In this document: piece after piece, positions 1-16,134 of the stretch | Layout: the number at the start of each line of letters is the position of its first letter | How positions within the stretch are numbered: the first letter of the stretch is position 1 | NCBI GenBank assembly: GCA_003244125.1 | Contig: QHBL01000051.1 | Coordinates: 1,604 to 18,167 of the forward strand | DNA from: Chthoniobacterales bacterium | GTDB taxonomy: Bacteria > Verrucomicrobiota > Verrucomicrobiae > Chthoniobacterales > UBA10450 | DNA length: 16,564 nucleotides | Direction: 5' to 3' | Made by a program: the position numbers and the translations under genes | The notes under the pieces: model-generated | The model's database searches: none | What the model was told of the DNA's origin: nothing | What the model saw: the letters and a program-made list of their open reading frames with translations, nothing else

Positions 1-702
1 CCCCAGCGTCAGATTATCCGGCAACATCCGGGCCAGTTGCCGGTCCGAATCGTAATATTCCAGCGGAATAAACGCCGCTTTCGTCCGGTCGACCAACGCC
101 GACACCACCGCATCGAGCTTGTCGCTGTCCTGCCGGCAAAGCTTATCCAGCAACGACGCCGCCAGCGCCTGCCCGCTCAGGCTCTTGTTCAGCCCCTGCA
201 CCGTTTCCAGCGCCGCGGTCACCTCCGTTTCCGGGAATAACTGCTGAACGATGAGGAACTTGGCCAGCTGCTCGTCCCCGCGTTCCTGTAAATTGTAATG
301 CTGCTCGCTCTTCCGCTCCAGCTCCACCAGCCCGCCCTCGCCCCCCGGCGTATACAACGCCTGCGCGATCAGCGCGCTCTCGGGCGTCCCCGGCGTTTGT
401 CCCTTCGCCTGCATCCGCTGCTCGATCTCGCCCAACATGGACAGGATCTCCGGCGAATTCGGCTGCTGCTGGAGCAACGCCTCGAACTCCTGCATCGCCA
501 GCGCGTAAGAGCCGGCGCTGAAATACGCCTCCGCCAGCTTGCGCGAAACCCGCAGCTTCTCCTCCTCGCGCCCCAGCTTCCCATAAGCCTCTTTTAGAAT
601 CTCCAGGCTCTGGTAATCATCCGGATTCGTCCGGGCGATCACCTCGAACATATCGATCGTCTGGAGAATCTGCGCCTCGTCTGACTGCGTGTGTTCCAGC
701 AC
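1..702 (-). CDS. TPR plus MshEN-like (GspE/PilB-type) protein, N-terminal part
   Basis: This is an open frame running off the left edge, with 234 codons visible from a GTG at 702 (a TTG at 711 is also possible). An in-frame TAG at 718-720 blocks any start further upstream. The N-terminal half is helical, with TPR-like units around residues 20-90 (motifs such as DYQSLEILKEAYGKLG and EAYFSAGSYALAMQEFEALL). The C-terminal visible part (about 155-234) has a LLDKLCRQ...AFIPLEYYD...RMLPDNLTLG pattern. This matches the MshEN/T2SSE N-terminal domain found in front of GspE/PilB assembly ATPases. The ATPase itself, if present, would lie outside the window, so it may be a type II secretion/type IV pilus ATPase or a standalone MshEN protein. 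The start lies only 15 bp from the stop of the truncated tsaD, and no good ribosome binding site is visible, so its own 5' end may also have been affected by the rearrangement. Confidence 0.6.
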   Translation of the reverse strand, partial: MLEHTQSDEAQILQTIDMFEVIARTNPDDYQSLEILKEAYGKLGREEEKLRVSRKLAEAYFSAGSYALAMQEFEALLQQQPNSPEILSMLGEIEQRMQAKGQTPGTPESALIAQALYTPGGEGGLVELERKSEQHYNLQERGDEQLAKFLIVQQLFPETEVTAALETVQGLNKSLSGQALAASLLDKLCRQDSDKLDAVVSALVDRTKAAFIPLEYYDSDRQLARMLPDNLTLG

Positions 703-717
703 GAAAATCAAGCGAAG

Positions 718-1224
718 CTAGATTTGTACCGATGGGCCACCCGGCCGGTGTGCGCGGAAGACAGGCGTCTCGCCTGTCACGGCAGACGGGCGTCTCGCCT
801 GTCGGTCAGTTTCGACAGCCGGGACGGCTGTCTGCCTGGACAGGCGCGGACGCCTGTCTTCCGCGAAAAACGGCGAAAGCAAATGGCCTTCCAGGTGATT
901 GATAGCCAGGAACGGTTTGCCCGCGCCGATGGCGAGCGCCTTCGCCGCCGAATTTCCGACCAGCAACGAGCTGGCCAGACCGGGACCGCTCGTTGCCGCA
1001 AATGCATCCAGTTCACCCAGCTCGATCTCCGCCCGGGCCACAGCGCGCTCCAGCAGCTGGGGCAATTGCACGAGATGATTGCGCGCAGCTACTTCGGGCA
1101 CGACGCCGCCGAATTTCTCGTGCTCGCGAACCTGAGACGCCACCTCGCTGGCGAGCAGTCGCCGGTCGCGCAAAATCGCGACAGCCGTTTCATCGCAGGA
1201 AGTCTCGATCGCCAACACGGTCAT
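718..1224 (-). pseudogene. tsaD: tsaD, truncated after the metal-binding motif
   Basis: TsaD is the Kae1-family subunit that transfers threonylcarbamoyl to A37 of ANN-decoding tRNAs. The N-terminal half is clear: VLAIETSCDETAVAIL at residues 3-18, the FGGVVPEVAARNH segment at 38-50, TSGPGLASSLLVG at 78-90 and the metal-binding NHLEGH with H110 and H114. Homology stops at about residue 120. From A121 to the TAG at 718-720 the frame reads through a 113-bp palindromic repeat plus about 30 bp of unrelated sequence. The family is usually about 330-350 residues. The second ASKHA lobe and its later metal and substrate residues are therefore missing, and no matching sequence follows in the window. 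The ATG at 1224 is the start that fits the family, but it lies at the very edge of another palindrome, so there is no normal leader. As it stands the gene cannot make a working enzyme. A second copy elsewhere or an assembly collapse at the repeat are the alternatives. Confidence 0.85.
753..865. repeat. 113-bp nested palindromic repeat inside tsaD
   Basis: The outer arms begin CGCGGAAGACAGGCGT on the plus strand and end ACGCCTGTCTTCCGCG. Nested inside is a second inverted pair, GGCAGAC (from about 782) and GTCTGCC (to about 837). The whole element could fold into a long cruciform or RNA hairpin. Its right end coincides with residue 120/121 of tsaD, so it marks the break. No ORF or transposase is inside, so it is either a non-autonomous (MITE/REPIN-like) element or a recombination scar. 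Confidence 0.85.
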
Positions 1225-1303
1225 CCCGAGCGAAGCCGAGGGATCCCGTTGCGCAAGCTTAAAGGTAACTTCCACGGGATCCCTCGGCTACGCTCGGGAT
1301 GAC
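1220..1303. repeat. Palindromic hairpin repeat, copy 1
   Basis: The element is an almost perfect inverted repeat. The left arm is GTCATCCCGAG...CCGAGGGATCCCGT and the right arm is ACGGGATCCCTCGG...CTCGGGATGAC. It fills most of the gap between the S41 protease stop (1334) and tsaD. The left end contains the tsaD ATG (read on the minus strand as CTCGGGATGAC). It shares its core with copies at 6796-6876, 11503-11595 and, most closely, 16050-16134. A transcript hairpin here would sit directly at the tsaD start. Confidence 0.9.
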
Positions 1304-1333: not shown

Positions 1334-2632
1334 TTACTGCTTCACCGGCTGGGCACGCCGCGCGTTTTGTTGTGCGTAAATCATCACGCCCTTGAGCGCA
1401 TCGATCGCGCGCAGCATCTGTGGATCCCGCGTCCGGACCTGCGTCTTTTCGTCGTCGGTCTTTACGTCGCTATTGCGCGAAGCGAAGAGCGCCCGTTCCT
1501 GCTCCGTAGTCATGGGCACGGCGATGTTCGGCGCGACGCCATTGCCGTGGATGACCTGCTTGCTCGGGGTGTAATATTTCGCTGTGGTGAATCGCAGGGC
1601 CGAGCCGTCTGGCAACTGCAACACATTTTGCACCGACCCTTTCCCGAACGTCGTTTCCCCGACGATGATCGCCCGCTTCAAATCCTTCAGCGCGCCGGAG
1701 ACGATCTCCGCGCCACTTGCGCTCCCTTCATTCACCAGCACCGCCATCGGAAAACTCGGCCGCTCCTTCGCCACACCGGAGGTCTGATACTCACGCTCCT
1801 GTGAAGCAGCGCGCCCCTGCGTGGAAACGACGGTGGTATTCGGCGGCAAAAACTGACCGCAAACGTCCACCGCGCTGTTGAGCAGACCGCCGGGATTGTT
1901 GCGCAGATCGAGCACGAGCGCCTGCATTCCCTGCTTTTGTAATTCATCGAGCGCCTTGCCCAGGTCCTCCGCCGTCGGCTCGTTGAATTGCACGATGCGC
2001 ACGTAACCGACTTTAAAGGCGCCGGTGAGATCGCGCTCGAGCAAGTGCGCGGCTTTGACGCTTTGCACTTTCACTTCCGCCCGGTCCAGCGCGTAATCTT
2101 TCAGCTCTTTCGTCGATGGCCGCAACACGGTCAGCGTCGCTTTCTGTCCCGATTTGCCGCGCAATAAATTCACCGCCTGTTGCAGTTCGAGCTTCTCCGT
2201 CGGCGCGCCATTGATTTTCAAAATTTGATCGCCGGCCAGGATTCCCGCTTTGGCCGCGGGCGTATCTTCCATCGGCGTGACCACAGTGAGCACGCCATTC
2301 TTCATCGAGACTTCGATGCCGAGGCCGTTGAAGCGGCTGCGGGTGTCGTCCTGCATGTCGCGAAAATCATCCGGCTCCATGAACTGGCTGTGGGGATCGA
2401 GCGAGGAGAGCATGCCTTTCATCGCGGCGTAAACCAGATCGTGATAGCTCGTCTTATTGCCATCGACGTAGTCCTGCCGCAGCAACTGCACCGCCTTGGC
2501 AAAAACGGCGATCTCGCTGTAGCCGTCATCCGCATTGGTCTCGGCCGCGTGCAGATTAAACACTCGCGTGACCAGTAGCGCGTTGATGACCGCGAGCAGC
2601 GCCACGATTGATAAAACGAATCGCCTTCTCAT
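1334..2632 (-). CDS. ctpA: C-terminal processing protease (S41 family, PDZ domain)
   Basis: This is a periplasmic or membrane-anchored serine protease of the CtpA/Prc type, which trims or degrades envelope proteins from their C-termini. The start chosen is the ATG at 2632 (MRRRFVLSIVALL), because it opens directly into a signal-anchor hydrophobic stretch (about residues 4-25). A TTG at 2677 would only add 15 unremarkable residues. The protein is 432 residues, normal for the family. Visible parts are an N-terminal cap helix region with SSLDPHSQFM (about 76-85), a PDZ domain at about 103-175 (GVLTVVTPMEDTPAAKAGIL) and the protease core with RNNPGGLL (about 244-251). The catalytic Ser lies in NEGSASGAEI (S306) and the catalytic Lys in TFGKGSVQ (K331). 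The 25-residue Ser-Lys spacing is the canonical one. It is divergent from the DUF885 gene with 76 bp between the starts. Confidence 0.93.
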   Translation of the reverse strand: MRRRFVLSIVALLAVINALLVTRVFNLHAAETNADDGYSEIAVFAKAVQLLRQDYVDGNKTSYHDLVYAAMKGMLSSLDPHSQFMEPDDFRDMQDDTRSRFNGLGIEVSMKNGVLTVVTPMEDTPAAKAGILAGDQILKINGAPTEKLELQQAVNLLRGKSGQKATLTVLRPSTKELKDYALDRAEVKVQSVKAAHLLERDLTGAFKVGYVRIVQFNEPTAEDLGKALDELQKQGMQALVLDLRNNPGGLLNSAVDVCGQFLPPNTTVVSTQGRAASQEREYQTSGVAKERPSFPMAVLVNEGSASGAEIVSGALKDLKRAIIVGETTFGKGSVQNVLQLPDGSALRFTTAKYYTPSKQVIHGNGVAPNIAVPMTTEQERALFASRNSDVKTDDEKTQVRTRDPQMLRAIDALKGVMIYAQQNARRAQPVKQ

Positions 2633-2708
2633 CCCATCACGAGTGTCGTTCAGTGGGAATTCTTTGGCAACGCGCAAACGGGCGGTTTACCGTCCGCGCC
2701 ACAAACTG

Positions 2709-6795: not shown

Positions 6796-6876
6796 TGTCA
6801 TTCTGAGCGCAGCGAAGAACCTCTCAACATATCCCGGGGAATGGTTCGTGAGGTCCTCGCTTAGCTCGGGATGACA
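6796..6876. repeat. Palindromic hairpin repeat, copy 2, inside the pqi operon
   Basis: The left end TGTCATTCTGAGCGCAGCGA and the right end AGCTCGGGATGACA are inverted versions of the family ends seen at 1220-1303 and 11503-11595. The inner arms (GAACCTC / GAGGTCC) also pair. It lies across the end of pqiA part 1 and just upstream of pqiA part 2. In the mRNA it would form an intra-operon hairpin, as REP elements do, and could alter mRNA stability or the stoichiometry of the two PqiA halves. Confidence 0.85.
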
Positions 6877-7543
6877 GGCTTGGCTGGCTGCTCTCCAGAC
6901 GTGTCCAGATTTCGCGCGGATCTATGGATGCGATCGCGGCGGTCAAACAAATGATCAACCCGACGAAGGCCCAGAAGGACAGGCCCAGGGTTAAAGTCGC
7001 CAGCTTGCCCAGCTTCATCAGGCTAACCAGCACCCCCAGCAAATAGACTTCGATCATGTTCCATTTCCGCGCTCGATAAACCCAGCGGCAAAGTGGAATC
7101 GCGTCCGGCAATCGCCGCCCGGCCATTAACGGCAAAAGCAAATAGAGCAGGCCACCGATCATGAGCGCCGGCGCGGCCAGGGTAAAGATAGCGACCGCCA
7201 TTGCCAGGTAAGGGTAACCTTGATTTTCCAAACCGGAGACGCTTTGCCAAAGCAACATCTGGCTTTCGCGAAATTCCGCTTGCAAGCTGAGGAAGGGGAA
7301 AGAGTTCGCCACTATAAACAGCGGCGCGGCAGCGAGAACAAAGGCGACCGCGCGCCGCAGCGAATTACGCCGGTAGCCAAACAGCAGCGCGCCGCAGCGC
7401 GAGCAGACGATGCGTTCGCCTTCGTGCAAAACCGGGGCCTGAAAAAGCGCGTCGCATTCTGGGCAGGCCAGGTGCTCTGAGGAGCCGGAAGGACGCAGTG
7501 TAAAAGCCGTGCGATCGCTGCGCGGAAGTGTCGCCTGCGTCAT
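6824..7543 (-). CDS. pqiA: PqiA-domain membrane protein, first half
   Basis: This is a 239-residue single PqiA domain with a zinc-ribbon pair CPEC...CSRC (C27, C30, C47, C50). About four membrane segments follow (about 64-86, 111-140, 163-178, 183-205), with RKWNMIEVYLLGVLVSLMKL equivalent to the RWSMVDVF segment of the second gene. It acts with PqiB in intermembrane transport. The ATG at 7543 overlaps the TAA of the upstream permease gene by one base (TAATG), indicating translational coupling. The native domain ends near IDPREIWTRL (about residue 216). The last 17 residues and the stop codon (from about residue 223) are encoded by a palindromic repeat, so the original C-terminus or stop has been replaced by repeat sequence. 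The domain itself looks intact and probably functional. Confidence 0.92.
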   Translation of the reverse strand: MTQATLPRSDRTAFTLRPSGSSEHLACPECDALFQAPVLHEGERIVCSRCGALLFGYRRNSLRRAVAFVLAAAPLFIVANSFPFLSLQAEFRESQMLLWQSVSGLENQGYPYLAMAVAIFTLAAPALMIGGLLYLLLPLMAGRRLPDAIPLCRWVYRARKWNMIEVYLLGVLVSLMKLGKLATLTLGLSFWAFVGLIICLTAAIASIDPREIWTRLESSQPSLSSRAKRGPHEPFPGIC

Positions 7544-11502: not shown

Positions 11503-11595
11503 GTCATCCCGAGCCGCGCAGAGGGCGAGGGAACCTCACGAACGTGCTAAAGCGTTAGACCATTTGTGACGTTCCTCGCTGTCGCTCGGGATGAC
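11503..11595. repeat. Palindromic hairpin repeat, copy 3
   Basis: Family ends GTCATCCCGAG (left) and CTCGGGATGAC (11585-11595) pair, as do the inner blocks CGAGGGAAC and GTTCCTCG. The loop is longer and unlike that of the other copies. On its right it directly abuts the broken 5' end of a kinase/TPR-like remnant, and on its left it lies 71 bp upstream of rmuC (minus strand). Confidence 0.85.
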
Positions 11596-11783
11596 AGGGA
11601 GAGGGAGCGCTCGCGCAAAACAAGCCGGCCGAACCGATCCTCCTCGCCGGCTATGGAGGACTCAAAGCAGCGCTGGGACCGGAACATCCGCGCGCGCGCG
11701 CCGCCGCGCAGGTGTTGGCGAAATTCTACGAAGCAGCCGGGCGCCCAGAGTTGGCCGCTCCTTACCGCAGCTCGCAGGACTGA
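11595..11783 (+). pseudogene. 3' remnant of a kinase/TPR-type gene
   Basis: Reading on the plus strand in the frame ending at TGA 11781-11783 gives 62 residues, including ILLAGYGGLKAALGPEHP, VLAKFYEAAGRPELAAPYR and a final SSQD. This looks like the last TPR units of the long serine/threonine-kinase or WD/TPR proteins common in Planctomycetes-Verrucomicrobia, whose ends read like LLxGYxGLK...LYEAWGKPExAAxYR. A stop precedes it in frame at 11592-11594, within the palindromic repeat, and no start codon or upstream domain is present. The gene therefore appears to have been deleted from the left exactly up to the repeat. A tiny functional ORF is unlikely. The parent family is recognised from memory only. 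Confidence 0.5.
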
Positions 11784-16027: not shown

Positions 16028-16049
16028 GGACTCAGAATAACGCACCTCG

Positions 16050-16134
16050 TCGTCGCGAGCGAAACGCCGAGGGATCCCGCAGCGCCACGCTACGGTAACT
16101 TCCGCGGGATCCCTCGACTTCGGTCGGGAAGACG
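16050..16134. repeat. Palindromic hairpin repeat, copy 4, in the yjbQ-hpt promoter region
   Basis: The arms CCGAGGGATCCCGC and GCGGGATCCCTCG pair. The segment GGTAACTTCC plus CGGGATCCCTCG is nearly the same as in copy 1 (1264-1286), so these two copies form a subtype. It fills most of the 120 bp between the divergent yjbQ and hpt starts, leaving little room for promoters unless the repeat carries them. Confidence 0.88.

What the first reader, a model, noticed from the sequence alone, without database searches (positions are those of the whole stretch)
718..1224. tsaD cut in half at a 113-bp nested palindrome
The N-terminal lobe of TsaD is intact up to the HxxxH metal motif. The frame then enters a palindromic repeat exactly at its edge and ends. 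The second lobe is missing and unrelated sequence follows. TsaD is essential or near-essential in most bacteria because t6A37 is nearly universal. Either a second copy exists, another t6A route is used, or the assembly joined two loci at the repeat. Each outcome is informative.
Basis: partly seen in the sequence, partly recalled or inferred. Interest (0 to 1): 0.72.

Follow-up and report, generated by a model that had tools for sequence, protein, structure and literature searches.

The report
Transposon palindrome inside an essential gene
The palindrome where this soil bacterium's tsaD gene appears cut is a small repeat that relatives carry in frame inside a complete TsaD protein, so the cut is most likely a wrong join at the repeat; transposases linked to such repeats lie in frame inside other housekeeping enzymes of related bacteria.

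Summary
The minus-strand frame 1224-718 encodes the first 122 of 314 positions of TsaD, enters a 113-bp hairpin (753-865) and stops 12 codons after its last repeat-coded residues; the C-terminal lobe is absent from the window. "TsaD lost" is not supported. Complete TsaD proteins from related uncultured Verrucomicrobia (P0003, P0122, P0125 and others) carry the same kind of repeat in frame at the same residue, right after HLEGHLLSPFF, and continue into the second lobe. In an AlphaFold model of P0003 the insert is a low-confidence loop on a normal TsaD fold. After the repeat the window runs into an unrelated TPR gene. The junction is a join at a repeat: probably an assembly error, less probably a real rearrangement; reads would decide. 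The repeat resembles, at DNA level, palindromes flanking a REP-associated tyrosine transposase (RAYT) that lies in frame inside CarB of relatives. RAYTs also lie in frame inside MetH, RecG, AlaS, ValS, RarA, MqnA-type and TsaC proteins, TsaC being another t6A enzyme. At one CarB site, hosts 98% identical carry RAYTs 60% identical, which suggests replacement. In-frame palindromes are known; my paper searches found no in-frame transposases in housekeeping enzymes.

The parts
718..1224 (-). tsaD 5' part: N-terminal lobe up to HLEGH, then repeat-coded residues and 12 alien codons
   Evidence: TIGR03723 and PF00814 partial matches; listed in the database as the window's own 168-aa protein P0121
753..865 (-). 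113-bp REP-like palindrome (family 1), read in frame as (A)EDRRPRLSRQTAVPAVETDRQARRPSAVTGETPVF(R)
   Evidence: 17-bp perfect outer arms; z -8.8; of the three frames on the tsaD strand only the one used is stop-free (all three on the other strand are open); DNA hits to palindromes flanking CarB-embedded RAYTs
732..752 (-). 21 bp between the palindrome edge and the start of homology to the TPR locus; unassigned
   Evidence: homology of window 1-731 to L081 begins at 731
1..711 (-). 5' part of a TPR-protein gene (runs off the window), with about 20 bp of conserved upstream sequence to 731
   Evidence: TPR Pfam hits; 81% DNA identity to G001:C17, where it precedes a 574-aa and a 730-aa ORF and lies on another contig than tsaD
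1220..1303 (-). second palindrome family (family 2) covering the tsaD start codon (1224-1222) and leader
   Evidence: 30-nt arms, 97% complementary; 1205-1303 folds with z -10.4; related copies at 6855-6884, 11503-11596 and 16046-16133
1334..2677 (-). S41 C-terminal processing peptidase, conserved neighbour upstream of tsaD
   Evidence: directly before tsaD in 27 of 28 relatives L001-L028, about 5 kb away in L013

Best explanation
The 113-bp palindrome is a REP-like element, probably mobilised by a RAYT transposase, that inserted in frame into the loop of TsaD just after the HxxxH motif. It is translated as an extra stretch of about 35 residues in an otherwise normal TsaD. A second copy probably lies upstream of the TPR operon in this genome. 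The window joins the tsaD side of one copy to the TPR side of the other. The missing C-terminal lobe therefore most likely reflects an assembly join at the repeat (about 0.65), less likely a real recombination between two copies (about 0.25). Shown: the in-frame repeat, the same site in complete relatives, DNA similarity to RAYT-flanking repeats, and a separate location of the TPR gene in the relatives that can be judged. Inferred: translation, mobilisation by RAYT, the second copy upstream of TPR, and the assembly error.
For: (1) P0003, 89% identical to the window's N-lobe, reads ...SPFFPEDRRPCLSRQRAVPAVEPQGQQARPLLAMTGRTPVFPHIALVVSGGHT..., the same kind of repeat followed by the missing lobe. 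Of 142 fetched TsaD-type proteins with both loop anchors by pattern, 15 carry the family-1 signature and go on into SGGHT: 9 with an insert of the window's length (P0003, P0122, P0123, P0125, P0126, P0127, P0130, P0131, P0141; P0122 stands for 55 member sequences) and 6 with a shortened one (P0007, P0029, P0037, P0038, P0045, P0153); P0071, P0124 and P0128, missed by the patterns, were added by eye. (2) In 75 tsaD loci of the family all 74 insertions of 6 aa or more fall at reference residues 19-22 (31 loci), 120-127, this loop (8 loci), or 220-233 (29 loci), and 0 elsewhere. Long loop inserts fold strongly: loop 1, 5 of 8 with z<-2 against 2 of 62 short loops; loop 2, 18 of 27 against 1 of 35; core windows 1 of 130. 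(3) The window repeat hits, at DNA level, repeats flanking CarB-embedded RAYTs: G025:C182 79%, E 2.9e-21; G068:C161 77%, E 5.2e-18; G066:C71 71%, E 2.9e-11. (4) A clear TPR-gene match is found in 31 of 83 family genomes (a 32nd, G069, is weak). In the 29 of these that also have a tsaD match the two lie on different contigs in 28 and about 287 kb apart in G030; in 10 of 11 relatives examined another, convergent gene follows tsaD, and in the eleventh, L001, other ORFs. (5) AlphaFold model of P0003: pLDDT 81, pTM 0.81; only 124-151 (this insert), 258-277 (loop-2 insert) and 383-386 fall below 50 in runs; best PDB match is E. coli TsaD, 4ydu, TMt 0.92.
Against: No reads, no host genome and no second copy upstream of the TPR gene were seen; G001 has no such repeat there or elsewhere at E<=0.001. 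Separate contigs in draft genomes do not exclude neighbourhood where the tsaD contig is cut inside the gene (for example G014, G019, G025, G032, G040, G049). The palindrome in the window is one intact, well-paired element, as a real single copy would be. G001 also shows altered gene order downstream of tsaD, so real rearrangements happen here. Contig ends inside tsaD in other genomes do not cluster at this loop. The tetranucleotide make-up of 1-731 is mildly atypical for the window (2 of 97 blocks as far), while a control in G001 is unremarkable (23 of 102): inconclusive.
Confidence: 0.72

Rival explanations
1. Real recombination between two copies of the repeat moved the 3' half of tsaD elsewhere; the strain survives with a second complete tsaD, or this is a minority variant in the population.
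For: The junction lies at a repeat; gene order downstream of tsaD differs in the closest genome found, G001; the gene upstream of the TPR operon in G001 was not found beside it in the other TPR loci (short flanks).
Against: In 75 of 83 family genomes with a match, tsaD looks single-copy; no other of 182 fetched TsaD-type proteins runs from the repeat into foreign sequence.
Confidence: 0.25
2. TsaD works as two separately coded halves in this organism (split TsaD).
For: The N-lobe frame is intact and begins at a normal start.
Against: Among 75 tsaD loci of relatives I saw frames cut by contig ends and three possible frameshifts (G005, G008, G070), but no separate N-lobe gene; 12 alien codons follow the repeat here.
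Confidence: 0.03
3. The palindrome is an ordinary intergenic terminator or REP and the gene is simply a decayed duplicate of tsaD.
For: Strong hairpin.
Against: The N-lobe sits in the conserved S41-tsaD position and keeps 79-89% identity to complete relatives; the same kind of repeat is coding in complete relatives.
Confidence: 0.07

Closest known systems
REP elements and their RAYT (TnpA-REP) transposases
   Same: GC-rich hairpin repeats, dispersed, flanking a Y1/HUH transposase that hits NF047646 REP_Tyr_transpos in 14 of 14 proteins tried; intragenic REPs are reported (PMC3733652, passages read).
   Different: REPs are described as mostly intergenic; here the repeats, and whole RAYTs, lie in frame inside housekeeping enzymes. 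PMC6006769 (passages read) reports REPs in frame inside tnpAREP genes themselves, and says that unexpectedly long proteins, from fusions or annotation errors, were discarded.
Rickettsia palindromic elements (RPE)
   Same: Palindromic repeats inserted in frame in protein genes (mentioned in PMC3733652, passages; the original RPE papers are recalled, not read).
   Different: Other phylum (Verrucomicrobiota); no sequence comparison was made; here a candidate transposase is found, itself inside host genes.
Inteins and other mobile elements that hide in conserved proteins
   Same: In-frame residence in essential proteins with empty, short and replaced states at one site (recalled comparison).
   Different: No splicing domain appeared among Pfam hits of 19 fusion proteins at E 1e-5; the inserts sit in loops or linkers and appear to stay in the protein.

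Membership tests
TsaD (t6A synthase catalytic subunit) | Full-length two-lobe match above curated cut-off | tested here: not met
   159 bits against 296 for TIGR03723, positions 1-122 of 314 only
TsaD (t6A synthase catalytic subunit) | HxxxH metal motif | tested here: met
   HLEGH present in the window frame; both histidines invariant in the 35-sequence alignment A1
REP element of a RAYT system | Hairpin repeat | tested here: met
REP element of a RAYT system | Dispersed copies in related genomes | tested here: met
   11 of 16 genomes searched have a match; most in G068, 9 matches at 5 places, since a palindrome hits on both strands; only one copy in the window
REP element of a RAYT system | Same repeat flanks a RAYT gene | tested here: met
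   G068 and G066 on both sides, G025 on one side
REP element of a RAYT system | GTAG or CGTC tag at the hairpin foot | tested here: inconclusive
   CGTC occurs within the outer arm, not at its foot (sequence)
REP element of a RAYT system | Mobilised by the transposase | not testable with these tools
   needs an excision or insertion assay
Rickettsia palindromic element | In-frame insertion in protein genes | tested here: met
   15 of 142 TsaD-type proteins, 9 with the whole-length insert
Rickettsia palindromic element | Sequence homology to RPE families | not tested
   no RPE sequence was compared
RAYT (NF047646), for the domains embedded in host enzymes | Score over the NCBIfam cut-off of 80 bits | tested here: inconclusive
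   3 of 14 pass (MetH L246 84.1, RecG L242 and L248 82.9); the others lie at 56-79 bits, the free-standing copy L250 at 73.5
RAYT (NF047646), for the domains embedded in host enzymes | HUH motif | tested here: met
   42 of 43 frames by my pattern, which also admits Y for the first H; the Tyr-NP pattern that I used matched 30 of 43 and misses variants

The most novel reading that the evidence does not exclude
In this family of soil Verrucomicrobia the RAYT/REP system has adopted a coding lifestyle: whole transposases and their palindromes enter and replace one another in frame at fixed loops or linkers of housekeeping enzymes (CarB, MetH, RecG, AlaS, ValS, RarA, an MqnA-type enzyme, and two t6A enzymes, TsaC with a transposase and TsaD with its palindrome), so that the transposase is made as an internal domain of an enzyme and the element is sheltered from deletion, an intein-like strategy without splicing.
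Probability: 0.55. Interest if true: 0.87.

Novelty: new variant of a known kind. Interest (0 to 1): 0.7.

Why it matters
It turns an apparent loss of an essential gene into a likely assembly join at a coding palindrome, a trap for genome annotation. More widely, it points to transposases living in frame inside essential enzymes, with turnover at one site. That makes testable whether small palindromic elements persist by choosing, or being filtered into, tolerant loops of proteins the cell cannot lose, and whether such enzymes merely tolerate or use the extra domains.

Tried and rejected
Own-genome search for the TsaD C-terminal half, tsaB, tsaC and tsaE: not possible, no genome is held. I looked instead at relatives: N-lobe match in 75 of 83 family genomes and TsaB in 9 of 9 genomes tested. 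tsaE was not searched.

Idea that assemblies generally break at this loop: contig ends inside tsaD fall at scattered places (reference residues 51, 85, 98, 144, 163, 188, 189 and 307), so this was not supported.

Idea that 1-731 comes from another organism: tetranucleotide test inconclusive; its identity to G001 (81% DNA) is like that of four other window stretches (74-80%).

Vertical inheritance of the CarB transposase: not well supported. Host identity and transposase identity are only weakly related (rho 0.19 over 18 of the 23 CarB frames; 43 of 2000 permutations as high, so a weak link remains). Left out were L244, which has another transposase type, and four frames cut by contig ends. Pairs such as L122/L276 are 98% identical in CarB and 60% in the transposase; L267/L271 are 98% and 88%.

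The sample of transposase frames is biased: 40 of the 43 loci were picked from the list, mostly for long frames, and 3 came from repeat hits. A fairer figure is that 106 of the 150 rows listed lie in open frames of 400 aa or more; some genes take two rows, and says more matches were not listed. An open frame alone does not name a host.

PF01797 (Y1_Tnp) was hit in 9 of the 19 fusion proteins scanned with Pfam at E 1e-5 and not in the other 10, among them all 3 CarB and 4 RecG proteins scanned; NF047646 was therefore used as well and hit 14 of 14, 3 over its cut-off.

Paper searches (all ten allowed, open-licence PMC papers only) on palindromic elements in protein genes, palindromes in Verrucomicrobia or Udaeobacter, RAYT, Y1_Tnp fusions and in-frame transposases in housekeeping enzymes listed no description of the latter. 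Papers seen: PMC3733652 and PMC6006769, passages only; PMC2817692, where none of my terms occurred, so no passage; the others as listings.

Full report
WHAT IS THERE. The window's minus-strand frame 1224-718 matches the first 122 of 314 model positions of TsaD. Sequence matching TsaD stops after NHLEGHLLSPFF; the frame then reads through a 113-bp palindrome (753-865; 17-bp perfect outer arms, nested inner hairpins) and stops 12 codons after ...ETPVF. Of the three frames on the tsaD strand only the one in use is free of stops through the palindrome, and from GAA to TTC it is exactly 35 codons. To the left the window carries the first part of a TPR-protein gene.

WHO IT IS. The closest genome found is a Verrucomicrobiota MAG (L001, JAFASN010000011.1; 79% identity over the N-lobe). 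L001-L028 carry record titles of Verrucomicrobia, Spartobacteria, Chthoniobacterales or Udaeobacter. The S41 peptidase gene lies directly before tsaD in 27 of these 28 loci and about 5 kb before it in L013. In 10 of 11 relatives examined tsaD is followed by a convergent ORF that I read as a polyprenyl synthetase (by eye, not scanned); L001 is the exception. A clear match to the TPR gene occurs in 31 of 83 family genomes, plus one weak match. In 28 of the 29 that also have a tsaD match it is on another contig, and in G030 about 287 kb away; where the tsaD contig is cut this says little. In G001 the TPR gene precedes a 574-aa and a 730-aa ORF and has 81% DNA identity to window 1-731, ending 21 bp short of the palindrome. 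G001 has no such palindrome there.

THE REPEAT IS CODING IN COMPLETE TSAD. A protein search with the window's own N-lobe and repeat returned P0003, 386 aa, with the same kind of repeat at the same residue and then the missing lobe (89% identity over the N-lobe). Of 182 TsaD-type proteins fetched (the best 120 of each search), 142 have both anchors around the loop by pattern; 15 of these carry the family-1 signature and continue, 9 with a whole-length and 6 with a shortened insert. Two of the 15, P0141 and P0153, are themselves incomplete further on. The patterns missed P0071, P0124 and P0128. Among the 40 without both anchors, looked at by eye, the only one that runs from the repeat into foreign sequence is P0121, the window's own. 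In 75 tsaD loci from the family (three duplicate loci dropped; some cut by contig ends) all 74 insertions of 6 residues or more against a short reference occur at residues 19-22 (31 loci, mostly a 6-residue clade feature), 120-127 (8 loci, this loop) and 220-233 (29 loci); none elsewhere. Inserts in the last two often encode palindromes: loop 1, 5 of 8 long inserts with fold z below -2 against 2 of 62 short loops; loop 2, 18 of 27 against 1 of 35; 1 of 130 core windows. Two of the 8 long loop-1 inserts (L148, and L088 from G001, the closest genome) fold worse than shuffles, so not every insert is a fresh palindrome. In the AlphaFold model of P0003 (35-sequence alignment A1) the fold is that of TsaD (4ydu, TMt 0.92), and the two inserts are the only long stretches with pLDDT below 50.

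WHY THE GENE ENDS. Since the repeat is compatible with a complete TsaD, the cut is made by what follows it. In the family tsaD looks single-copy and TsaB is present in all 9 genomes tested, so loss would be surprising. The simplest account is that the same repeat lies in tsaD and upstream of the TPR operon in this organism and that the contig crosses from one to the other. I judge assembly error likelier than real recombination, but no result here separates them; the points against include the lack of any general excess of contig ends at this loop.

WHAT MOVES THE REPEAT. The repeat hits genome DNA of relatives (11 of 16 genomes). Several of the best hits lie inside very long frames that proved to be CarB with an internal REP-associated tyrosine transposase: repeat peptide, transposase, second repeat peptide, then CarB again (G068, G066; G025 has the recognisable repeat on one side). 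The single best hit, in G074, lies in an 81-aa frame with no known host, so copies outside long genes exist too. A search with that transposase domain matched 73 of 83 family genomes at E<=0.001; of the 150 rows listed, 106 lie in open frames of at least 400 aa. I examined 43 frames, chosen mostly for length: 23 CarB, 7 MetH (at two linkers), 4 RecG, 3 AlaS, 2 TsaC/Sua5, 1 ValS, 1 RarA/MgsA, 1 MqnA-type and 1 free-standing; 8 of the 43 are cut by a contig or locus end. Hosts were confirmed with Pfam for 19; the others rest on signature words that I chose. The transposase was named by NF047646 in all 14 proteins tried, over the curated cut-off in 3; a HUH-type motif is present in 42 of 43. These are unlikely to be single-assembly accidents: for TsaC, 34 of the 120 proteins listed have the TsaC, Sua5_C and transposase domains together, on contigs up to 651,767 bases; the other listed ones are mostly TsaC without the insert.

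TURNOVER. CarB of G011 and G041 has the site empty; G042 and G019 have a short insert there that looks palindromic by eye, and G001 and G027 short inserts of unclear origin; 23 frames hold a whole transposase, one of them (L244) of another transposase type. Among 18 of these frames, CarB N-parts are 89% identical at the median and the transposases 59%; L122 and L276 are 98% and 60%. That pattern fits repeated insertion or replacement at one loop better than inheritance alone, though a weak correlation remains. The pair L267/L271 shows pN/pS 0.14 in the transposase, so it has been under selection as a protein.

COMPARISON. Coding palindromes are known in Rickettsia, and intragenic REPs in several species (PMC3733652, passages). 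REPs in frame inside RAYT genes are reported, and long proteins were set aside, in PMC6006769 (passages). I found no account of RAYTs in frame in housekeeping enzymes in the ten searches named above. The tsaD case is thus a new variant of a known kind; the truncation itself is probably an artefact.

Noticed in passing
L123:2435-6520, L124:2336-6454, L122:3079-7116 and 20 further loci: CarB (carbamoyl-phosphate synthase large subunit) frames of up to 1388 aa with a REP-associated tyrosine transposase in frame in the oligomerisation domain; same site, differing transposases; empty sites in G011 and G041.
   Followed up: partly
L253:2551-4299, L252:1379-3166; P0183-P0216, P0229: TsaC/Sua5, another t6A enzyme, with a RAYT in frame between the YrdC and Sua5 C-terminal domains; 34 of 120 listed database proteins have all three domains.
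   Followed up: partly
L243:3-3692: MetH frame that appears by eye to hold two RAYT domains, one at each of two interdomain linkers, the first cut by the contig start.
   Followed up: no
L246, L247, L249, L241, L251, L254, L255, L258, L259, L261: RAYT domains in frame in MetH, RecG, ValS, RarA/MgsA, AlaS and a VitK2_biosynth (MqnA-type) protein (L249 by signature words only).
   Followed up: partly
1220-1303: The tsaD start codon (1224-1222) and leader lie in a second palindrome family; relatives L002 and L003 have the same family near the tsaD start. It could hide the start in a hairpin.
   Followed up: no
6855-6884, 11503-11596, 16046-16133: Further copies of the second palindrome family; by eye the first is read in frame at the C-terminus of the protein coded at 6824-7543, and the last lies at the start of a frame that I read as hpt-like, not scanned.
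   Followed up: no
L125 (G022:C28), minus strand: A 471-aa membrane-transporter-like frame (by eye, not scanned) with the family-1 repeat peptide in frame.
   Followed up: no
L090/L139 (G005), L109/L145 (G008), L141 (G070): tsaD of these genomes matches in two or three pieces, as if frameshifted; real or sequencing error not examined.
   Followed up: no
class-level CarB search, for example G100:C111, G328:C1, G247:C2: Many Verrucomicrobiota outside the family show CarB N-half frames of only about 490-650 aa, as if CarB were coded in two parts.
   Followed up: no
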